Shown piece by piece: positions 37,215 to 62,709 of a stretch of 64,000 bases of DNA. Position 1 is the first letter of the stretch; each line of letters begins with the position of its first letter. The position numbers and the translations under genes were made by a program. The stretch comes from Sistotremastrum niveocremeum HHB9708 (lineage: Eukaryota; Basidiomycota; Agaricomycetes; Sistotremastrales; Sistotremastraceae): NCBI GenBank assembly GCA_001630475.1, contig KV419439.1, positions 107,155-171,154 on the forward strand. The letters are read 5' to 3'. Below the pieces are notes generated by a model that saw nothing but the letters and a program-made list of their open reading frames with translations, searched no databases and was not told where the DNA came from.

Positions 37215-37227
37215 TTGAATCTCAAGA

Positions 37228-38544
37228 TCAAATTCTTCCGAGTTGCTCAAGCCGCGCTCTCCCATGATACCAAATGCCTCTGCGTCCTCTAGCATTCGCT
37301 TCCCAACACGCTCGAGAAGTACCCTTCTTGAAATGGTTCACCAGTTTGATGAACGCGACTCTATTGTCGATCGCCTCATATTTAGAAGGTTTATCCTTTG
37401 GCAACTCGACGTCTGGAGCGTCAGATCCCCAACGCCCCAGAGAAGCAGCCACAACGATCATACGAAGCGACGCATGCTTCTTGCAAAACTCTCCCAGTTT
37501 GTCGACCTCGGCGAATTGGAGGCTTGTAGAGTATATTCCGAGGTGTGTCACGCTGGGAAGACGCTCGATGAGGGAGGAGAAGGTAGGAAAATCGATCCAA
37601 ACGAATTCGAGGGCGAGATGTGTGCATTTGGTAAGGATGGAGGGAGTAGGGAGTCCATAAATTTGCACTATGCCGCACTCTGCATCGAACACTGTGACAT
37701 GGGAAGGATAGATATCCCCTGACCAGAATGTGTTGTCATTGTAGCCCGTGGGTGGAGGGCCCTCCCAATTATCGGATCCTAGTCCTACTACGGCTATGTC
37801 TTGAAGAGATGTACAGTGGCTTAGAAGTCCGGTGTCTATCTCCACCGGGGTTTCGAGATATAGATGCTTCACCAGGGGGAACAAGGACTGCTCGGTGGAC
37901 AGTACGGATTGAGCTGTTGACATGAATGAACAGAGTTTCGTGTACTGTACTAAAAGGACCATAGCGGATGGTCCCTTGTCCCCAGGGTCTGCAGCCCCGC
38001 TATATTTTGCGGTTTGTCCCTTGTCCCTTAGCATGTATTTAGACCAATAAATAATAAATATATTCCGAAAAATCACAAAAATATTCTATAGTGTGCAGAA
38101 TCACTACAGACTCACAATAGACATCCATCCGAGCCCCCAACAACCCTAAAAGACAGAGAATATTGCAATTTATTGTATTTTAAGTCGATTATTTACAAGT
38201 TGTCCCTTGTCCCCGACAGTCCGGCCGCATCACCGCAACGTAGTTTTCGCTGTCCCCTGTCCCCACCCGCTCCGCAATGGTCGTTTTAGTACAGTATTTC
38301 ATAATCTTCACGACGGAGTATAGGACTGGTTTAACCCTGCAAATCATGTATTCAGAGTTCATATTGGAGTGCTCAACGTGAGTGGAAGAGAATGGATGAG
38401 GACGGACCATGCTGCGAAACTTTTCGATACCAGGCTGAGATTTAGGCAGGCTTTTGTTCCTCTCTGAGCTGCACATTCGACTATGAGTCTTTGTACGTCG
38501 ATTGCAAGATCGCTGAAGGTCTCTGCGCGAATATTCGTCGACAT
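37228..38544 (-). pseudogene. F-box gene B, left-arm copy, disrupted by a MITE
   Basis: Exon 1 starts at ATG 38544 (MSTNIRAETFSDLAIDVQRL) and ends at a conserved splice after SLVSKSFAAW. Exon 2 continues KPVLYSVVKIMKY and is then interrupted by a 350-bp element at a TA. Reading into the element gives about 30 foreign residues and a stop. On the other side the frame resumes with TKLCSFMSTAQS and stays open to the stop at 37228. The right-arm copy shows the uninterrupted sequence. The remaining exon is intact, so the insertion is probably recent. A truncated N-terminal protein, or one starting at an internal Met (37,923), cannot be excluded. Confidence 0.88.
37945..38294. mobile_element. 350-bp MITE with TA target duplication
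   Basis: The terminal inverted repeats begin CTGTACTAAAA and continue with GACCAT and GCGGA; about 23 of 25 bases match between ends. It is flanked by TA on both sides (37943-37944 and 38295-38296). The undisturbed paralogue reads ATGAAATACACAAAACTC at the same point, giving a clean empty site. TA duplications point to the Tc1/mariner superfamily. Inside, GTCCCTTGTCCC-type motifs occur four times. There is no coding capacity, so it must be mobilised in trans. Confidence 0.92.
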
Positions 38545-38939
38545 GTTGACCGTTTTGACTGTACAGTCGTTTCGCTTACGGGTTGCCGGCCTCGAGTAAC
38601 CGTAAGCGCCCACCATCGGCCTTGATCGGAAGGTGAAATCTGGCGCAAGTCGTCGAGGTCTATAGCAAGTAGCTCAGAAGGCGGAGTTTTGAGCACAGAG
38701 AAACATAGGACGCTCAGTACAAGAATTCAGAAAGAGAATATGAAGTGTTTAATTTTTTGCGAAGGGAGAACACCAGGGGCGGTATCACAATATTACTAGT
38801 ATGCACTACACGCCGTCAATGAAACTGTACACTCGATTGCCAGACTAAAGCCAAAGCCATTCGTGCGCATCATACAGAGAAAAAATCATTGCTATCACCA
38901 GAAATATAAAAGTTTGAAAAAGAATGAGTAACAGACGAG

Positions 38940-39380
38940 AATCCCGACTTCCCTCACCTAGTGGTCCCACTACCCCAATCCCCACGGATCAGGCGTCACC
39001 CCTAAGGATGAGATGGTCCCAGTTCGGCGTTTTCAAGGAGAACCCGTGACTCGTCCACCGGCAGACGGTCTCGCATAGGACAGTCGTCGGCCATGTATCA
39101 GCACCTCCCCACGAAGGCTTGACGGAGTTGAACCTGGGTCGCGACATCCAGTTACTCTGCCCTGTGATACATGGCGTTCTTCCACCTAAGCTACCTCGCC
39201 CGCCGTTAGGGTACATATGTGCAGGAAACCTATAAACAGGTTTTTCGCCTCTTTATGCTATAATTCCCTTGTGTTTGGAGAGGCAGTGCATTCCGGTTTC
39301 CGACATCTGCTTCCGCGATAGTGAACCCAAGTATAGAATTCTAGAACGAAAGGTAGCGCTTTGGTGAAGAGATACTTATT
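38940..39380. other. Hyperconserved spacer block, left-arm copy
   Basis: This spacer between the two duplicated genes is about 97% identical to 58,545-58,960 by hand count, including two 60-base stretches without a difference. It contains a 75-codon minus-strand ORF at 38,989-39,216. See the right-arm entry for motifs. Confidence 0.6.
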
Positions 39381-39566
39381 GGACCGATCTGCTCGCTCGA
39401 AATTCTTTGTGAGCTTCAGCTACAATTTATATGTACAGTAATTAGAACAGACTCAAGATTACAGATATCGCGTATAAATACAACTTAGCAAAGCTTCGAA
39501 CCAAACGACAGGTCGAGAAAGATACAGGCGTGATATTCTGGAGACCAAAACCAAGATTATCGTATA

Positions 39567-41023
39567 TCATGAACATAGTGTGAGTTGCTTCAGAGTAACG
39601 TTCCGCAAATCAGGAGGCCACTTCAACGATGATTTCGGAAACGGTTTCCGTATTTTGAGATCACCCTTCCCAACGGGTTTCGTTCTTGGAAATCTGTAAG
39701 CTCAATTAGCCGAAGTCGACATTGGTATGGAAGTCGATCTCACGCTCTTGAGTTAACATCTTCGCACTCCTCAGTTCCGGCTTCAGGGCATACACGCCGG
39801 CGACTCGATCCTGGCAAGCGGGCGGACAAGCGGTTCATACTCTAGTCCATTGATGTTCGCCGATGAGATGATGCCACCCTCCTCTGAGAGTGGCTCAAAA
39901 TTGGACAATTATCCGGTTATCCTATCATCGAGTTAGCTCTCTGCAACCCTCTATTCGGGAAATATAGACGGACAATAGTACGACCCAAGAAGGACTCAAT
40001 CGAATTCAGTTCGAAGACGAGAGGATGTTCGAGCCATGCTACTACGAGGGAGACATCGTACGGTCTGTTGGGACCGAAGCCATCCAGGTCGAAGAGCACA
40101 AAGAACGTGTTTCCTTGCATCTCAGGATTGCGAAAATGGGGAGGTAATGAAGCTTCGAAGGGTTCGCGTTTGACTTTTTGTTCTTCCATCTTCACAACGC
40201 CCGTAGTCGCCGGAGAGGCTTGCGCTTCTTCGCTAGAAGCCATACCGTCGATCCCGATGAGTTCACGTGGACCGCTGCTCATGAAGCTCCGGTAGGGAAC
40301 GAACGTCTCTTCTCTTCCTTCGTCTGATGCAGGAGGGTGCTGGTGGTGCTGGTGGAGGTCTTCTTGATTCCGGCAACGCGTTTCCCCAAGATCTTTGACC
40401 CATGATTTTCGGAATTTCGGCCCATTATGCACAGGGGTATGAGTATTGCGGTCGTATTCGGGGACGAGGAGGTGGGTTGTATCGACGGGGGTATACGTCG
40501 ACCAATTCTTCATATTCCAATTTAAGATCGACATGTCAAGATAAGAAGGAGGTCACGTACGGAGACTTGGGAATACGAATGAAGACCAGCTGAATTTGAA
40601 TATATACGATATTTGATGTCTTTCCTCCGGACGACATAGATCGAGGAATGAAGACCAGGGATGTGTGCCGAGTTTATCATCTACATCGAGTTCTCAGGGA
40701 CTTCTATGATGATGTTAGGATTTTCTTTAAAAGTTGGCTTGTATAAAGAACAAGAGAGATTAAGAGGCGCACGGTTTTCTTCGCATAGATCGAGAGTATG
40801 TTGTCTTTTCCGACGACAGATCCAAGCCAGGCGAGAACGTTCGACGCGTCTCGTTCATATTTCTATAGCAGTGCGAGTCGTTGAGTTGGAATCTTAGATC
40901 GTCATTCATGAGCGCAACGTAATGCCTACGAACAATAGTGCCTCGTGGACCCAAAGGCGTATAGACAACTAATTGGGCGTTATCCGGTTCTTCAGGCTTT
41001 TGTGGCTTTCGCTTTTGTAACAT
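39567..41023 (-). pseudogene. Gene A, left-arm copy, decayed
   Basis: It aligns exon by exon with the intact right-arm gene (56,822-58,298). It starts MLQKRKPQKPEEPDNAQLVV, and the segments ERDASNVLAWLGSVVGKDNI and ASLPPHFRNPEMQGNTFFVL are preserved. Disabling changes include a one-base deletion in the segment matching EVPKELDVDD (near 40,691), which shifts the frame into TAG. Two further in-frame TGA codons occur in the fifth exon, one at the codon for Arg in QFRAS and one at the codon for Trp in KVWTAC. The exon-3 acceptor is also changed. The equivalent of the final stop is at 39,567. Confidence 0.85.
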
Positions 41024-41218
41024 GGCACGTCTATAAGAGAAAATAAGTCCTTGAAGACCAAGATTCGACAAGAGCTTCCGACTTTCGAGAGTGCCTCACC
41101 AACGAGCGAGGCGCGAGAGCAAAGAAGGATTTCCGAATGTCGATCGTTTGATCCCATTGGACGCTTTGAACGAAAATGTGTTTCTGGTTTCTTTGTTGAT
41201 GCTTCAGATTGTTACCCC

Positions 41219-52977: not shown

Positions 52978-54819
52978 TTACCAGATCCTGGTCTCAAGCA
53001 ACAAATCACTGCTTCCTTCCAAGCCAACGCATGCCTTCAAGAAAGTCTCCAACGCATTCCTCTGCCTGTTGAGCGAGTTGACGACGTCCGTGCCAGGCTT
53101 GACAAGAGGAGCCTTGAGCATATAAGAAAGAAGTGACAAAACGGGATAAAGAGGCTTGAAATCTCCGCTTTGCTCGGTGACGGGACGATATTGGATGCGA
53201 GTCAAGAGCTCGGTGAGGATGACGAGATCGAGGATGAGAGGAGTAGCGAGGAGGGAGTCTTCGCATTCGTTGAAGATGTTGATGGTGGAACGACCGCCCA
53301 TGAGGATCTCGGAGTGGTACTCGTCGATCGCGCGCTTGGAGTCGCCGACGGCGGGAACGTATTTGATGACGACGATGTGGTCGGGGTGTTCGCCCTTGGC
53401 GGCTTTCTTGTCTACCTTGCTACCTGCGGCGACTGTAAGGGAGTATGATCAGGATGATATTCATGAAGAATGAGGAAGGGAAACGCACCAGCGGAAGCAG
53501 TAGGGGGCTTGTAAAGCAAGCGATTGCTCTCCACCATGTCGTCGACGACGCTACTCTTACTAATCTCCTTGCTCTTGAACTGCGCCTCCTGGCTCAAGTT
53601 GTAACCATCGTTGTTACCGAGATGGTTGTAGCTAGCGATGCTGAGAGGCTTGATACCGGCGTTGACAAGGAACTCGGCGAGGACACTCTTGAGTTTGGTC
53701 TGACCACTCTTCAAGTCGTCACCACCGATGAAGGAGTTGTGACGCTCGGCGAGATCGATGACACCGGGAACGAAGGTGTTCTGAGGAGCGCCGTTGACGA
53801 AGGGGGCGTTCTCGAGGATGGAAGCTACGGCGAAGACGGTAGATGGGGAGACTTCGGAGTGAGAGTCTTTGATAGCGGCGAGAAGGTTATCGGCGGTATC
53901 GTTGACGCCAGCGATGATGTCGCTGTAGCGCTCGGTGTTCGCAGTCCAGAAGACAACAACACGATCCAAATCGTGCTCAGCCTTGAACTTGCGGATATCG
54001 GCCCGAATGTGCTCCAGATGAGCGAGCTTATCGGAACCTGAGATAAGGTTATCCGCACGGGCTTCTTGATTGGCGGCGATGAAATCGGGATAGTAGATGG
54101 AAGGGAGAGGCTTCCCGAGATCCTTCATCAACGGCATAACCTGTCTCTGGAGATCCCAATCGAGGACTTCGGCGCGAACCATAGCCTCGTCCATGGGGAG
54201 GCCGGAGATGTCCCAACCTCCAAGGACGAGGTCGTTGGGGTGAACCATGGGGAGGATGTTGGAGATGGGGACGTGAACATCCTTGAGGGTGGTAGGATCG
54301 GTACCGAGGCGAACGGTGGATGCGCGGAGGAGAGATCCGATGTAGTTGGGGGTTTGAAGGCCGGACTTGGTACGCCAGGTGATGCCGTGACGGTTGGCGA
54401 GAATGGTAGCACAGAGAGTGGAACCATTGTTGCCTCCCAAGCCGATCATCATGAGACTATACAAAGAAAGATCGAGTAAGAACGATGTCGCATACGTAAA
54501 AGAGATGAATGACATACCCAGTCTTCTGAACCTTGACTTCGGTCTGGAACTCGTACGGCTTGACGGTGGGAATGACGTTGAGCTCGCCATTGGGACCTTT
54601 GACGACGTCAGCACCGCGGTTGCTGAACTTTGAGATGATGTGCTCGGGAGTGTACCGAGTGTTCTCGGAGTGCACAGTGATAGGTGCAGTCTGTCGAACA
54701 GAGGTGGGGTGGATGGGGATAATAGACTCGAGCTCAGAATCGGGGGTATTGAGCCCAGAGGAATATGCTACGCCGCTGCCGACGGTGTTGATGGTAGGAC
54801 CAGTAGCGTGAGGTGCCAT
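52978..54819 (-). CDS. INO1: Myo-inositol-1-phosphate synthase
   Basis: Exons 54518-54819, 53489-54456 and 52978-53432 give 574 residues. Signatures include the NAD-binding [84 protein letters not shown] and [14 protein letters not shown]. The enzyme converts glucose 6-phosphate to 1D-myo-inositol 3-phosphate using NAD, the first committed step to inositol and phosphatidylinositol. Length and motifs are normal for the family. A 30-residue low-complexity N-terminal extension precedes the catalytic fold. No clear inositol-response element (CATRTGAAAT) was seen in the ~800 bases upstream. Confidence 0.97.
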
Positions 54820-56627
54820 GGTAGTTGGATGGATATATCAAGTGGATTTAATTGACGAAGGTGTTGGTGGATATCAATTCCGATTCAAAGGAGCAGCGGC
54901 GTGCTTCTTTCCTCTGTGCGTATTGTGGGTGCTTGAAAGCTGGTTCGAGTACATACAACGATGGAGGAGTATGTAGCAAGAAGGGGTTTGGGTTTACGAA
55001 GAGCGGTGCGATACGCGACTTGGAGGCAAGAGCAAAGGCAAAGTTAACTGGGGGCGCGATGGAAGGGGCGAACGAGGAGAAAGGCCGTTGGGGGCAGACT
55101 TTATAGCAACACGAAGGAAATGGAACGATCACCCCGAATATTTGTTCAAACTCCGGTCTTTATCGATGCCCGGACCCGGCCGATCTGCCGGGCTCAAACC
55201 TCCAGAAAAATTGCCAGAAAAACGCAAGTTCAGGGCGACGAAGACAATTCGAGGACTTCCACAAAAAATTGATAAACGCTAGCTCGATATAAAAGGAAAG
55301 AAATTGAGCGTTTGGGTTCACGGATGAAGCAGCCGAGCGCCGGTGCGCTAGCTCCCTGAACCGGCCCGAAGATTCAGCATACGCGGACCCACGAGGGTAC
55401 ACGAAGCCGAGCCTCTTCTTTTCTTGGGCCTTCCCCCGAGCATCTTATCGCACGAAACAATACTTGCCAGCACTCGCGGAAGCGCAGCTTTGTCGATCAA
55501 ACCCTCGTTTTCTGAGGCCGAGGGTCGAGGATCATCAGGGCCGCAGGAAAGCCTTCCTGGTGCTCGGTGAACGGTGAGCCACAGTGTCAAAAAGGTATTC
55601 TGTTGCTGCGTATCTCTGAGCTCGCTTCGAAGTGAGGCACCGATTGAACGAAGGACACAAGAATCAGGTTTTATTTCTCACCAAAGATTCAAGCTGGTAT
55701 TACTTTGACTATATTAGTATTTCTTCTGCGAATTGAGAACAGGGACGGGGTTCCGACACGATGCCACTTATTACGCTTGCATTGATAAAAAACCAGCACA
55801 CCATATCAACTAATGATGTTTATCGGGTAATCGGCAAGACCGAAAGCCTCGAAACTTCACGTTGCCGCCCTATAGGCGAAGAAGACAGTCTGAAGACTCC
55901 TATTGTTGCTCAGGACCTGTAACACGCTGTCAACTCATTCTGGCTACATCCTTGATCGATGACAACGTTCTGACCAAAATGCGTTAATCGGTTAATGTCC
56001 ACTCAATAGCGGCCCCTGAAAGACGTGACATGTAGATCGGCAAACAGCCTCGTGCTCTTGCCTGGCTGTTTTGTTCACGACTCAAAGACCCCCATTTGAT
56101 GAAAGTTCGTATGTGAGTTATCCTTCCTTTGTGGTTCTCTTATCTATAGCGGATAACAGCATCGTCGATAACTTATTGCGTCCTGGCATGGCAAAGCAAG
56201 CTTGTGATTCTCAAAGGCCTTAAGGCGAACAATCAACTTCTTGCGTAAGGTTTGGCGTAATCGGGGTGCATAGTCCATCAAAAAGCATCGTACGGTGCGG
56301 TATAGGTACATTCCTCACTCACTAATTCCGAGGTCAGATCGGCGTCAAATAGATTACCCGGCTCGAATATACAGTAAACCCGGGACCACGTCTGAGTAGC
56401 TGATCATTTAGGAATCAATATCATCCTACAAGACTCGGAAAGACGGTGTTGATTGGTTTGAAATTTGGAGATTATCAGAAAGAATGAGGGCATTTGAAGT
56501 TTGAAAGATGTTTACAGCCTGAGCGGATCGAGATACCGGGGGATTTGTATTGTAGGCTTGCGATCATGTGATCAATCAAGAATTCCCTCAGTACGTTCAT
56601 CAAGTAGGAATCGCATCGTTCAGAGAG
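54820..56627. promoter_or_regulatory. INO1 upstream region and spacer
   Basis: 1.8 kb. The part next to 54,820 is the INO1 promoter. ORFs inside are short and unsupported. Beyond ~55,600 nothing was recognised up to the edge of the right duplication arm. Confidence 0.4.
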
Positions 56628-56821
56628 GCAACAATCCGATGCATCAACAAAGAAACCAAAAACGCGTTTTCGTTCAAGGCGTCCAATGGGATCAAACCGT
56701 CGGGATTCGGAACTCCTCTTTTGCTCCCGCGCCTCGCTCGTTCGTGAGGCGCTTTTGAAATACGAAGCTCGTCGAAACTTCGTCTTCAAGGACTCTTCCT
56801 CTCTTCTCAAAGGAACCTGCG

Positions 56822-58298
56822 ATGTTACAAAAACGAAAAGCACAAAAGCCCGAGGAACCGGATAACACGCAATTGGTCGTCTATACGCCTTTCGGCCCAC
56901 GAGGTCGTACTATTGTTCGTAGGCATTACATTCCGCTCATGAACGACGATCTATGATTCTAACTCGACTCGCATGGCTTTAGGAAGATGAACGAGACGCG
57001 TCCAACGTTCTCACTTGGCTCGGAAGTGTCTTCGGAAAAGACAACATACTCGCGATCTACGCGAAGAAAACAGTGCGCGCCTCACTCTCTCTCGTTCTTC
57101 CACCAAGCTGATTATTCAAGAGGATCCTAACATCATCATAGAAGTCCCTAAAGAACTCGACGTAGATGATAAACTTGGCGCACACCCTTGGTCTTCATTC
57201 CTCGACCCATGCCGTCCGGAGGAAAGACATCAAATATCGTATATATTCAAATTCAACTGGTCTTCATTCGTATTCACAAGTCTCCGTAAGCTACCTCCTA
57301 TCTTGACGTCTCGATCCTGAATTAAAATGTATAGAATTGGTCGACGTATACCCCCATCGATACAACCCACCTCCTCGCCCCCGAATACGACCGCAATCCT
57401 CATATCCCCCTGCGCAATGGGCCGAAATTCCAAAAAGCATGGGTCAAAGATCCTGGGGAATCGCATTACCAGAATCAAGACGACCACCACCACCTCCACC
57501 TCGTCTACCACCTCCTTCAGATCCACCTCCACCTCCATCAGATGAACCCCGCGGAGAGATCTTCATTCCTTATCGTAGTCTGATGAGCAGGGGCTTGCGC
57601 GAACTCATCGGTATCGACGGTATGGCTTCTAGCGAAGATGCGCAATCCCCTACAGCCACTATTGTCAAGAAAGAAGAACAAGAAGTCAAACGCGAACCCT
57701 TCGAAGCTTCATTACCTCCCCATTTTCGTAACCCTGATATGGAAGGAAACACGTTCTTCGTGCTCTTCGACCCGGTCGGTTTCGATCCCAACAGGCCATA
57801 CGATCTCTCCCTCGTCGTTGCATGGCTCGAACATCCTTTCGTCTTCGGACCGAATTCCATTGAGTCCTTCTGGGGTCGTATTCTTGTTCGTTTATGTCTT
57901 CCCGTATTGAGCGTTACAGCGTTGACTAAATTTAACGACAGGATAACCGAATAATTGTCCAATTTCGGGCTAGTCGTGGAAGAGGGTGGCATCATCTCAT
58001 CGGCGAACATCATTGGAATAAAGTATGGACTGCTTGTCCACCCGCTCGCCAGGATCGAGTCGCCGGCGTGTATGCCCTGAAGCCGGAACTGAGGAGTGCG
58101 GACATGTTAACTCGGGAACGTAAGCTCCATTTCTAAACGAGTGTCGAACCCAGCTGATCGTGCTCAACAGATTTTCAAGAACGAAAACCGGTCAGAAAGG
58201 CTGAGATTGAGATTCGGAAACCATATCCGAAACCATCTCTCAAGTCGCCTCCTGATTTGCGGAACATCGCTGTCAAGCAAATCACGCTATGTCCGTGA
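56822..58298 (+). CDS. Gene A, intact copy: lineage-specific protein of unknown function
   Basis: Six exons: 56822-56914, 56983-57072, 57123-57285, 57335-57885, 57942-58119 and 58171-58298 (400 residues, phases consistent). It begins MLQKRKAQKPEEPDNTQLVV, followed by DERDASNVLTWLGSVFGKDN and a Pro-rich part with runs of six and five prolines near residue 165. A conserved core follows: EIFIPYRSLMSRGLRELIG, ASLPPHFRNPDMEGNTFFVL, NRPYDLSLVVAWLEHPFVFG, IIVQFRASRGRGWHHLIGEH. The C-terminus is basic. I do not recognise the family. Two divergent copies with the same exon structure show it is, or was, a real gene, with this copy under constraint while the other decays. Confidence 0.8.
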
Positions 58299-58544
58299 CA
58301 TACAGTAATATTTGTCTTGGGCTCCCCTATATTCAATTTTCGTACACCTGTATCTTTCTTGATTTGTTTCTTGGTCTAAAGCTCAGCTACATTGTATTTA
58401 TACGCGATATCTGTAAACTTGGGTCTGTTCTAATTACATCTAAATTAGAGCTGAAGCTCACAAAGAATTTCGAGCCAGCAGATGGGTCCAATAAGTATCT
58501 CTTCACCAGATCGACACCTTTCGTTCTAGAATTCTATATTTGGA

Positions 58545-58960
58545 TTCACTATCGCGGAAGCAGATGTCGGAAACCGGAATGCACCGCCTCTCCAAACACA
58601 AGGGGATTATAGCATAAAGAGGCGAAAACCCCGTTTATAGGTTTCCTGCACATATGTACCGTAACGGCGGGCGAGGTAGCTTAGGCGGAAGAACGCCATG
58701 TATCACAGGGCAGAGTAACTGGATGTCGCGACCCAGGTTCAACTCCGTCAAGCCTCCGTGGGGAGGTGCTGATACATGGCCGACGACTGTCCTGTGTGAG
58801 ACCGTCTGCCGGTGGACGAGTCACGGCTTCTACTTGAAAACGCCGAACTGGGACCATCTCATCCTTAGGGGTGACGCCTGATCCGTGGGGATTGGGGTAG
58901 TGGGACCACTAGGTGAGGGAAGTCGGGATTCTCGTCTGTTACTCCTTCTTTTTTAAATGT
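58545..58960. other. Hyperconserved spacer block, right-arm copy
   Basis: Lies between genes A and B and is ~97% identical to 38,940-39,380. It includes a 75-codon ORF (58,654-58,881) starting MYRNGGRGSLGGRTPCITGQ. Between arms that ORF has 7 base changes, of which 3 alter residues. A pol III A-box-like TAGCTTAGGCGG (58,677) and a perfect B-box GGTTCAACTCC (58,736) are spaced about 60 bases apart, but no cloverleaf forms. The hairpin TAGTGG-GA-CCACTA occurs near 58,898. It could be a small coding gene, a non-coding RNA, a SINE-like repeat or recent gene conversion. Confidence 0.5.
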
Positions 58961-59327
58961 TATATTTCTGGTGATAGCAATGATTTTTCTCTGTATGATG
59001 CGCGCGAATGGCTTTGGCTTTGGTCTGGAAATCGAGTGCACAGTTTTGGTGACATTGTGTACTTGGCAGGCGTAAATATCGTGACACCGTCGCTGGCATC
59101 CCCCCTTCGCGAGGAATTTTACTTTGGATCTTATATTATTCGAATTCATGGAACCACAAGCCTATGATACTCTACGCCCAAGATCACCTCATGAGCTGCT
59201 ACAGACGTCGCAACCTCGAGGACTTTTGCCGAATTTTAGCTTCCGATCAAGGCCGATCGCGGGCGCCTACGGCTACTTGAGGCCGGCAACCCGGAAGCGA
59301 AACGACTGTACAGTCAAAACGGTCAAC

Positions 59328-60283
59328 ATGTCGACGAACAGTCGCGTCGATACCTTCAGCGATCTTCCAATCGACGTACAAAGGCTCATCGTCGAATCTG
59401 CCGCTCAGAGAGGAAACAAAGCTTGCCTAAATCTCAGTCTGGTATCAAGAAGTTTCGCAGTATGGTCCGTCCTCATCCTCTCTTCTGTTAACGTTCAGCA
59501 ATCCAATATTGATCAGAATAAATAATGCCCAGGGTCAAACCAGTCCTATACTCCGTCGTGAAAATCATGAAATACACAAAACTCTGTTCATTCATGTCAA
59601 CAGCTCAATCCGTATCATCCACCGAATCGTCTTTGTTCGCCCTGGTGAAGCACCTATATCTCGACACACCAGTGGAGTTAGATACCGGAATCCTAAGTCA
59701 ATGTACATCTCTCCAAGACTTGGCCATCGTAGGCCTAGGATCCGATCATTGGAACGGCCCATCACCCCGAATGGATAATACATTCTGGTCGGGGGATGTA
59801 TATCCTTCGCATGTCACAGTTTTCGATGCAGAGTGCCGCGCACTGCAAATTCATAAACTCCCTGCCCCCTCCATCCTTACCAGATGCACACATCTCGCAC
59901 TCGAATTCGCCTGGATCGATTTCCCCTCTTTCTCCTACCTCATCGAACGTCTTCCCAGCGTGACACACCTCGGGATTTACTCCACAAGCCTCCAATTCGT
60001 CGATGCCGACCAGCTTGGAGGGTTTTGCAAGAGGCATTCTTCGCCTCGTATGGTCGTTATAGCTGCTTCTCGGACGCGTTGGAATGCTCAGGATGAAGAT
60101 GTTGAGTTGCCGAAGGATAAGCCCTCAAAATTCGAGGCGGTAGACAAGAGAGTCGCGTTTATCAAATTGGCGGACCATATGAAGAAGGGTGCTTCTCGTG
60201 AATGTTGGGAAGCGAACGCCAGAGGACGAAGAGGCATTTGGGAGTACGGGAGAGCGCGACTCGAGCAACTCGGAAGGACTTGA
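59328..60283 (+). CDS. F-box gene B, intact copy
   Basis: Exons 59328-59464 and 59533-60283 give 295 residues. The start MSTNSRVDTFSDLPIDVQRL, then ACLNLSLVSRSFAVW, has the shape of a short F-box. The rest is a conserved module: SSLFALVKHLYLDTPVELDT, LQDLAIVGLGSDHW, ILTRCTHLALEFAWIDFPSF, LPSVTHLGIYSTSLQF, ACWEANARGRRGIW-type ending. These are degenerate leucine-rich repeats as seen in large lineage-specific F-box families of mushrooms. A role as SCF adaptor is inferred. It is the only undamaged one of three copies in the window. Confidence 0.85.
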
Positions 60284-60678
60284 CTTCGAAGTTCATGCCG
60301 CTTCGAATTCTTTACAAGTGCCCTCATGCGCATGACTCATGTACCTCCTTCTATTCGAGCTGTCGTCCTGAACGCCGCAGTTGTGACTTACGATGCCTGG
60401 CGGGTTAAGCCTTGGGTTAAGCATTTTCGAGATACACTCTTGATCGTCATCGTCTTCGATGCATCATCGAGATTTACGACCGATTCCATTACTTGTTCTT
60501 CCTGCTATAAATGCTGTACATCATAACCTGCTTGAGACTTCGCAAATAAACCGTTCAAATTCTGTCGATTGATCAGCGCTGATCACGAGCGCCTATGGTG
60601 CCGGCTGCTTGAAGCCGGCCATTTCGGGAGCGAAATCACCTTAGAAACGACCGTACAGTCGAAACGGTCAACGTGCCC

Positions 60679-62602
60679 ATGAACTGCCATGTAGAAACGT
60701 TCAACAATCTCCCAATAGACGTTCAAATGCTCGTCGTCGAATGTGCCGCTGAGAGAGGAACAAAAGCCTGCCTAAACCTCAGCTTGGTATCCAAGACTTG
60801 ATCCAAGAGTTTCGCAGCATGGTTCGTCTTTATCTATTCCCTGCTCTTCGCATTCAGTGATCCAACAATGACTCATAATTATCGATGGTAGGGTCAAACC
60901 AGTTCTCTATTCCGTCGTAAAACTGCTAAAATACACCAAACTGGGCTCATTCATGTCAACAGCCCAAACTGTACCATCGTCCGATCCCTCTCTATTTGCG
61001 TTCGTCAAACACCTCTACCTAGGTACACCGGTGGATCTAGATCAACAACTCCTCCGCCAACTTCCATCTCTTCAAGACCTCGCAGTCTTCAGCTTCGGAC
61101 CCGAGCATTGGGGAGGCGGTCCTCCTCCCCCAACCGATAACGCATTCTGGTCCGGAGAAGACCTACCGGCATACCCGCCCCATGTCACGATATTCGATTC
61201 TGAATGCCGTCTCCTCCAATCCTATAAACTCCCTGCCCCGTCCATTCTTCGAAATTGCACACATCTCCAAGGGGCATGCACCAGCAAATGCCGATACACC
61301 GGGTCAATAGGGTATAGGGCTGGGAGCTCCTTAAAAATATTTTCTGACATCAAAATTTTATTTGGTTCCGAAGGTCTCAACATGCATTTCAGGACAACCA
61401 AACAGTTTAGAGACCGGGCCATCGACGTTATCCATCATGGTATCAATTACTTGAGTTCTCCGGCTTCAAGGTCTATTGAGCCTGCTGACAAATTACCTTG
61501 CCCCAGCGGAAAGACACCGAATCGCGACTCGGACACTCCTTTGCATACCTTCAGATGATCAGCATGACGCACCCAACCAATAGTGACAATGATAAACTGC
61601 AATGAATTATGAGTGGGACTTCCTCCGATAGACACTTTACAGAGACACTCAGGAAACCAATGGATGAAAAAAAAATCGACCGGACAGTTGCTTCGACAGT
61701 TCTCAATATTCGCAAAGTAAGCAAGCAACAGATTGAGGCCTCCTGTCGACGTCCAACCGGAACAAAGGCTTGTGAACTCGGCACATGTATGCTCGAATGG
61801 CCTTACGGTACGAGCCGCGGCCAAGACAAAATTGATCGTTCACTTGTTGATCATATTTATTTTGCGATTTCTGTGAGATTAACTGGTATTGCCAATACCC
61901 TATCTTCTACACTAAACAACACTGCAAGCACACCCTACAATCAACTAGAAAAGCCCGAAGGCTGACTGATTCCAGAGCCTCGCTTTCAGCCTTAAAACAG
62001 CTGAGAACTGTCAAATCTCATTCAAAAATAATCATTTAGGACTTGTAGACATCTGTGGTATGTCTGGGGGCCGCTAAGGAAGTGTAAAACGCAGAAAATA
62101 ATATATATATTGATTTACGGAGGTTTTAAAATAGGTCATAGGGATTTGGAGCCCTTAAAAATATTTTCTGACATGGTGTCGGAATATTTTATTCTGCATA
62201 CCCCTTGCACATCTCGCACTCGAAAACACTTACCTCGACTTTTCGTCTATCTCTTACCTCATCGACCGTGTTCCCAGTGTCACACATCTAGGACTATACG
62301 CTCCATATCCCAGTCGCATTGGCCTTGATAAACTCGAGATTTTTGCGAAGCGACATGGGAAGCTTCGCGTGATTGTGATAGCTGCTTGTCGAATATGGTG
62401 GCATGGACGCGAGAGAGATGTTGAGTCGCTGAGAGATGAGCCATGTATTTTCGAGGCGGTGGACGAGAGGATTACATTTATCAAATTGACGGATCATTAT
62501 CGAAATGGTGCTTCTCGTGCATGTTGGGAGGCGAATGCTAGAGGACAAAAAGGCATATGGGGTCACGGGAGAGATCAGCTTCAACAACTTGGAAGAATTT
62601 AA
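60679..62602 (+). pseudogene. F-box gene B, third copy, doubly disrupted
   Basis: It is in tandem behind the intact copy. Exon 1 starts MNCHVETFNNLPIDVQMLVV. A 12-base insertion repeating TCCAAG brings in TGA at 60799-60801. Exon 2 (from ~60,894) is open with FVKHLYLGTPVDLDQQLL and LQDLAVFSFGPEHW up to RNCTHL. There a 940-bp element is inserted (61,268-62,207). The sequence resumes after the element as LALENTYLDFSSISYLIDRV and is open to the stop at 62,602 (GIWGHGRDQLQQLGRI). Apart from these two lesions the copy is well preserved. Confidence 0.9.
61268..62207. mobile_element. 940-bp non-autonomous hAT-type element
   Basis: Flanked by a perfect 8-bp target duplication CACATCTC (61260-61267 and 62208-62215). 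The paralogous F-box gene carries the single-copy empty site. The ends CAAGGGGCATGCA and (reverse complement) CAAGGGGTATGCA form 13-base inverted repeats with one mismatch. A direct repeat, TTAAAAATATTTTCTGACAT, occurs inside both ends (61,331 and 62,155). Eight-base duplications and short TIRs indicate hAT. No transposase motif is visible in the short internal ORFs. Confidence 0.9.
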
Positions 62603-62709
62603 TTTCAGGATTGATGAAATAACCTAATAGTTTATCTCGTAATCAATTTCAGGCTGGATTTCAGGTGTTATATATTGTTCCATCTGAGCAACTACTGTAC
62701 TAATTCTAT

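What the first reader, a model, noticed from the sequence alone, without database searches (positions are those of the whole stretch)
58545..58960. Spacer more conserved than the genes beside it
Between the arms, the block 58,545-58,960 vs 38,940-39,380 differs at only about a dozen positions by hand count, with two 60-base runs identical, while flanking exons of genes A and B differ far more. It contains a constrained-looking 75-codon ORF, a perfect pol III B-box with an A-box-like motif upstream, and a hairpin. I regard this as the best candidate here for an undescribed functional unit (small protein or non-coding RNA), or else a patch of recent gene conversion or a repeat.
Basis: partly seen in the sequence, partly recalled or inferred. 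Interest (0 to 1): 0.75.

Follow-up and report, generated by a model that had tools for sequence, protein, structure and literature searches.

The report
Undescribed 31-copy fungal structured RNA family
The conserved spacer is one of 31 copies of a short gene that seems to make a folded, non-protein-coding RNA without a match in the RNA family library, with its own start and stop signals of the kind RNA polymerase III uses.

Summary
Window 58,545-58,960 differs from its inverted partner at 14 of 416 aligned positions, inside arms about 83% identical. The block is a gene-like unit found 31 times in the 34.7-Mb genome, 19 of them in about 215 kb of contig C5. Each copy has a ~285-nt core, a tRNA-type B box (10-11 of 11), TTTT at its 3' end (31 of 31) and none inside (0 of 31; shuffle mean 10.6). 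A 24-nt upstream element with a TATA motif hits the genome 22 times, always 99-101 nt before the family motif. Covariation backs the fold: 32 of 83 pairs change on both sides against 16.3 in shuffles; G-U cells outnumber A-C 401 to 7, so the + strand is the RNA. A 29-base hairpin motif is identical in 28 of 31 copies. Rfam gives no match; SRP-like, RNase MRP and RNase P matches lie elsewhere. The 75-codon ORF is not conserved. Retroposition is disfavoured, not excluded. Best reading: an undescribed Pol III RNA gene family, probably an RNP scaffold. Expression, function and other species are untested.

The parts
58617..58640 (+). upstream promoter-like element; TATA-like TTTATA at 58,634-58,639, about 27 nt before TAACG
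   Evidence: information profile of the 14 of 18 hand-chosen representatives that could be anchored; pattern made from it hits the genome 22 times, 13 exact, all at family copies. This window copy has more than 1 mismatch and is not among the 22
58659..58943 (+). ncRNA core, copy 1 (TAACG at 58,662, presumed near the start of transcription)
   Evidence: 28-copy alignment A1, fold, pair counts
58663..58812 (+). 5' structural domain (model R1)
58813..58939 (+). 3' structural domain (model R2)
58677..58687 (+). A-box-like motif TAGCTTAGGCG
58717..58745 (+). 29-nt hairpin motif (overlaps the B box)
   Evidence: genome pattern search: 28 exact and 3 one-mismatch places, reversed-pattern control 0
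58725..58732 (+). self-complementary loop GTCGCGAC inside the hairpin
   Evidence: read from the sequence; its columns are invariant in the 31-copy alignment A6
58736..58746 (+). B box GGTTCAACTCC
58949..58954 (+). T6 run, Pol III-type terminator
38927..39211 (-). ncRNA core, copy 2 in the other arm
39125..39153 (-). 29-nt hairpin motif of copy 2
39230..39253 (-). upstream promoter-like element of copy 2 (1 mismatch)
38917..38921 (-). T5 run, Pol III-type terminator of copy 2

Best explanation
The block is a gene for a ~285-nt structured non-coding RNA, one of a 31-member paralogous family. Shown by sequence: an upstream element with a TATA motif found only at this family, an internal B box and (in most copies) an A-box-like motif, a T-run at the 3' end, a two-domain fold kept by compensatory changes, and a nearly invariant hairpin. 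Inferred: RNA polymerase III (TFIIIC on the A and B boxes, helped by the TATA element) transcribes it from near 58,662 to the T run at 58,949-58,954. Inferred: the RNA works in trans as the scaffold of a ribonucleoprotein, with the hairpin (loop AUGUCGCGAC, holding the palindrome GUCGCGAC) as docking site for a partner common to all copies: a protein, another RNA, or a second copy of itself by loop-loop pairing. The family grows by DNA-level duplication out of the C5 cluster. My odds: functional Pol III RNA family about 0.8, RNP-scaffold mechanism about 0.5, loop-loop dimerisation about 0.25.
For: 29-mer at 31 genome places, 28 exact, 3 with one mismatch, none with two or three, reversed control 0. 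TTTT in the 25 nt that start 12 nt before the core's end in 31 of 31, against 142 of 1488 background windows; internal TTTT in 0 of 31 (first 5 nt of the core, before the presumed start, left out), shuffle mean 10.57, minimum 3 in 500. B box 11/11 in 3 and 10/11 in 28 of 31; best A-box match (10-11 of 11) at the same place in 22 of 31. Upstream 24-mer: 22 hits in the genome, 13 exact, each 99-101 nt before a family 29-mer, reversed control 1. Covariation: 32 of 83 pairs with both-side changes (shuffle 16.3, sd 2.2), 96.5% of cells paired against 39-46% when slid by 1-3 columns, no measure reached by any of 500 shuffles. With the three divergent copies, 23 of 41 pairs of the 5' domain change on both sides, three of eight in the stem round the invariant hairpin. 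Strand test 401 G-U to 7 A-C cells. In 14 of 17 compared pairs with alignable upstream DNA the core is more identical than the flanks. No Rfam match at E up to 5; SRP-like, RNase MRP and RNase P matches elsewhere.
Against: No expression data. One genome only, so all comparison is among paralogues, which gene conversion can homogenise. The structure was predicted from the alignment on which it was scored, and alignment A6 was fitted to the model. Folding energies are only moderately below shuffles (mean z -2.4, one copy +0.2; this copy z -2.0, 5 of 200 shuffles as good). The last base of the B box departs from consensus in 28 of 31 and the best A-box match lies elsewhere in 9 of 31. In one compared pair (the two copies in L015) the upstream match is more identical than the core, 94.9 against 93.3%, though that slice overlaps the other copy; two further pairs tie at 100%. 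The TATA motif is TTATGG in the three C12 copies. A degenerate copy (L025:2447-2690) and a 3' fragment (L026) look dead. Function is not shown.
Confidence: 0.8

Rival explanations
1. A tRNA-derived SINE or other non-autonomous mobile element: a Pol III-transcribed repeat spread by retroposition, whose copies are selected only through mobility.
For: 31 copies on 9 contigs; internal B and A boxes and short length; a degenerate copy and a 3' fragment. Several copies carry two or more ATTTT units after the core (four in L013), which could be read as a simple-repeat tail. One copy, L027:1792, has a 10-nt direct repeat in its flanks.
Against: A conserved element lies 22-45 nt upstream of the presumed start, which retroposition of the transcript would not carry. 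Longest exact flanking direct repeat averages 4.5 nt (under 6 counted as 0) against 4.8 in mismatched pairings, 151 of 200 controls as high. No A-rich tail. Some related copies on different contigs share upstream DNA, up to the full 700 nt compared for L018 and L020. 28 of 31 copies keep the 29-mer exactly.
Confidence: 0.12
2. A patch of gene conversion between the two arms, with no function of its own.
For: Identity stays high outside the family-wide unit (58,401-58,611 at 89-97%; 58,955-59,010 at 96.4%).
Against: In 13 of 16 other compared pairs with alignable upstream DNA the core also exceeds the flanks; two tie at 100% and one is lower. The paralogues show compensatory changes; conversion gives identity, not covariation.
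Confidence: 0.03
3. A conserved small protein of about 75 codons.
For: The ORF is open in both window copies.
Against: ATG in 3 of 31 copies; open stretch 2 to 101 codons, no value for one copy; indels within the core.
Confidence: 0.01
4. A chromatin boundary or TFIIIC-binding DNA element in which the RNA is a by-product.
For: TFIIIC B-box sites act as boundaries in fission yeast (recalled); the B box lies in the invariant 29-mer.
Against: Helix covariation and the G-U over A-C bias act at the RNA level; a boundary needs no ban on internal TTTT.
Confidence: 0.04

Closest known systems
Pol III RNAs with upstream plus internal promoters (fungal 7SL/SCR1, RPR1, vertebrate vault RNA; promoter layouts recalled, not looked up)
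   Same: TATA-type upstream element, A and B boxes inside, T-run stop; small structured RNA
   Different: no Rfam match; this genome's SRP-like, RNase MRP and RNase P matches lie elsewhere; 31 divergent copies; upstream element found only at this family
tRNA-derived SINEs (features recalled)
   Same: B and A boxes, dispersed multi-copy
   Different: no general target-site duplications, no A-rich tail, upstream element kept, shared upstream DNA between some copies, nearly invariant hairpin; the ATTTT units after some copies are ambiguous
Structured RNAs found in fungi by comparative genomics: 'Discovery of 17 conserved structural RNAs in fungi' (PMC8216456) and 'Identification of 15 candidate structured noncoding RNA motifs in fungi' (PMC5640933); passages only were seen
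   Same: structured RNAs found by covariation
   Different: the first survey used only Ascomycota genomes; in the second the terms 'basidiomyc' and 'copies' do not occur in the main text; sequences were not compared

Membership tests
Pol III gene with internal (type 2) promoter | B box GGTTCRANTCC | tested here: met
   11/11 in 3 and 10/11 in 28 of 31
Pol III gene with internal (type 2) promoter | A box TRGYNNANNNG near the start | tested here: inconclusive
   best match at the same place in 22 of 31; in 9 it lies elsewhere; start site unknown
Pol III gene with internal (type 2) promoter | T-run terminator and no internal one | tested here: met
   31 of 31 and 0 of 31
Pol III gene with internal (type 2) promoter | transcribed by Pol III | not testable with these tools
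   no expression or ChIP data
SRP RNA | match to Rfam SRP models | tested here: not met
   no hit in the block; the one Fungi_SRP match in the genome is C1:209287, 51.4 bits, below the 65-bit cut-off
RNase MRP / RNase P RNA | match to RF00030 / RF00009 | tested here: not met
   matches only at C35 (MRP) and at C6 and C45 (RNase P); none in the block
tRNA | cloverleaf found by ARAGORN | tested here: not met
   0 in the window and in 23 loci
SINE | target-site duplications | tested here: not met
   mean 4.5 against 4.8 nt control; one copy has a 10-nt repeat
SINE | A-rich or simple-repeat 3' tail | tested here: inconclusive
   no A-rich tail, but two or more ATTTT units in several copies, four in L013
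SINE | promoter wholly inside the transcript | tested here: inconclusive
   conserved upstream element, but the start site is unmapped
small protein gene | conserved start and frame | tested here: not met
   ATG in 3 of 31

The most novel reading that the evidence does not exclude
The founding family of an undescribed class of Pol III ribonucleoprotein: a dosage-amplified scaffold RNA that pairs with itself through an invariant palindromic loop, with a partner among the unnamed all-helical proteins encoded near it (8 of 9 such genes lie within about 4.2 kb of a copy), the whole forming a self-expanding cluster on C5.
Probability: 0.12. Interest if true: 0.88.

Novelty: new variant of a known kind. 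Interest (0 to 1): 0.7.

Why it matters
The Pol III RNAs known from fungi form a short list (recalled). A 31-copy, covariation-backed family with its own upstream element and no match in Rfam would be a new RNA to place, and the invariant hairpin gives a handle for pulling down its partner. It also shows that a structured RNA can be recognised from paralogues inside one genome when no related genome is at hand.

Tried and rejected
Small protein: rejected. Known RNAs: no Rfam match in the block at E up to 5 or in the window at gathering scores; no tRNA; SRP-like, MRP and RNase P matches elsewhere. Five other loci scanned at E up to 1 gave only three sub-threshold microRNA matches, all on a CG-rich inverted stretch of L025 at 2,336-2,443, taken as chance. 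Hitch-hiking with neighbour genes: among the loci held then, the F-box gene and gene B matched only beside the two window copies and, for the F-box gene, in the adjoining tandem at 60.6-62.6 kb. Relatives elsewhere: exact patterns are absent from genome contigs and viral contigs, and a 16-letter stretch from the papers held; those sequence collections are bacterial, archaeal and viral, so this says little about other fungi. Literature: searches listed no such family; PMC8216456 and PMC5640933 were seen as passages, every other paper as a listing or start of abstract. Neighbouring helical proteins: no Pfam match but a weak STAG hit at E 0.065; AlphaFold models all-helical, mean pLDDT 72.1 and 63.7; only the first was searched in the PDB, best E 0.17.

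Full report
Observation. The two arms (37,227-41,216 against 56,627-60,283, inverted) align at about 83%. Between them 58,545-58,960 has 14 mismatches in 416 columns, with identical runs of 69 and 112 nt; the F-box gene at 59,321-60,283 is at 83.8% and 59,061-59,200 at 63.8%.

A family. A DNA search of the genome holding the window (G000, 34.7 Mb, 111 contigs) gave 34 matches: 28 main places and 6 short pieces. A pattern search with the conserved 29-mer gave 31 places: 28 exact, 3 with one mismatch, none with two or three, none for the reversed pattern. Nineteen lie at C5:619-834 kb, three on C12, two each on C37 and C46 (the window), one each on C3, C9, C11, C14 and C27. I aligned 28 and left out the three most divergent (C3; C5:833.4 and 834.0). 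The covariance models find the 5' domain in all three (63-73 bits) and the 3' domain at 47 and 51 bits in the two C5 copies and, in part, at 23.7 bits in the C3 copy. A degenerate second copy (L025:2447-2690) and a 3' fragment (L026) are not counted among the 31.

Gene anatomy. For the upstream profile I picked 18 representatives by hand to thin out shared flanks (not all are independent); 14 could be anchored on the TATA motif and 4 (L007 and the three C12 copies) dropped out because the search expression missed theirs. Information is 0.2-0.3 bits per position at 31-60 nt before the TATA motif, 0.8 at 16-30 nt, 1.2 over the 15 nt before it and 1.9 in it. A pattern made from this element hits the genome 22 times with at most one mismatch, 13 exactly, every time 99-101 nt before a family 29-mer (start to start); the reversed pattern hits once. 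The nine copies not hit, copy 1 of this window among them, differ more. At the 3' end all 31 copies have TTTT in the 25 nt that start 12 nt before the core's end (background 142 of 1488 windows). None has TTTT inside, leaving out the first 5 nt, which lie before the presumed start (one copy, L027:1792, has TTTT there); mononucleotide shuffles give 10.6 on average and never below 3 in 500. B and A boxes.

Structure. RNAalifold gives 83 pairs, 32 with changes on both sides. On 27 distinct rows 96.5% of cells are paired and 32 pairs change on both sides, against 16.3 (sd 2.2) in shuffles; none of 500 shuffles is as high on any measure, and 39-46% of cells are paired when the partner is slid by 1-3 columns. 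The structure came from the same alignment, which favours it over the slid controls. The stem round the invariant hairpin does not covary among the 28, but with the three divergent copies three of its eight pairs change on both sides, for example CTGAGT/ACTCAG against CTAGAGT/ACTCTAG (that alignment was fitted to the model). G-U cells (401) far exceed A-C cells (7); on the other strand this would be reversed. Folding energy alone is modest: mean z -2.4 over 31 copies, one at +0.2.

History. I compared 19 pairs of copies, chosen because most share flanks. Core identity is 87-100%. Of the 17 with alignable upstream DNA the core exceeds the flanks (69-91%) in 14, ties at 100% in two recent duplicates, and is lower in one (the L015 pair, 93.3 against 94.9%, where the slice overlaps the other copy). 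The segment just upstream (-45 to 0) is 62-100% identical in the 19. The window pair (97.8% core, 77-82% flanks) is in line with the others. The tree places C37, C46, C27 and C9 copies among C5 copies (midpoint root, one long branch), and some copies share upstream DNA across contigs, which suggests DNA-level duplication out of the C5 cluster.

What it is not. No Rfam family at E up to 5 in the block; no tRNA; SRP-like (below cut-off), RNase MRP and RNase P matches lie elsewhere. No conserved ORF and no general target-site duplications. Against this, several copies have ATTTT units behind the core, so a mobile origin is disfavoured rather than excluded.

Neighbours. Two searches find the same nine genes of an unnamed helical protein family; L011 may hold a partial tenth (E 3e-4 to 1e-3). 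Eight of the nine lie within about 4.2 kb of a copy; the ninth (C29) has none in the 7 kb examined. Four have a copy about 1 kb upstream of the matched exons on the same strand. Seven of the nine share the C5 cluster, where nearness is partly expected, so this is a lead only. The window copies precede F-box genes instead.

Mechanism and limits. I commit to a Pol III RNA that serves as an RNP scaffold with the invariant hairpin as docking site. The invariance goes beyond the B box, and the loop is a palindrome, so dimerisation is a cheap test. Not shown: transcription, start site, partner, presence in other species. That the organism is a fungus, probably a basidiomycete, is inferred from gene style (recalled) and the Fungi_SRP match, not tested.

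Noticed in passing
C5:617-837 kb, C12:772 kb, C29:437 kb (L028, L012, L015, L022, L086): Nine genes of an unnamed all-helical protein family without a Pfam match above cut-off; eight lie within about 4.2 kb of an ncRNA copy.
   Followed up: partly
window 59,299-62,606: Tandem repeats of the F-box-type gene (about 71% DNA identity) next to copy 1.
   Followed up: no
window 37,945-38,293: About 350 nt present in the left arm and missing from the right one, between two parts of the F-box gene copy: an insertion or a deletion.
   Followed up: no
window 59,061-59,200: Only 64% identical between the arms, below the segments measured on either side.
   Followed up: no
L025 2,447-2,690: Second, degenerate tandem copy of the ncRNA on C3, beside a CG-rich inverted stretch at 2,336-2,443.
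   Followed up: partly
G000 C6:92550 and C45:86143: Two RNase P matches above the Rfam cut-off in one genome.
   Followed up: no
window 53,415-54,767 (-): Myo-inositol-1-phosphate synthase gene between the arms (Pfam E 1.3e-109).
   Followed up: no
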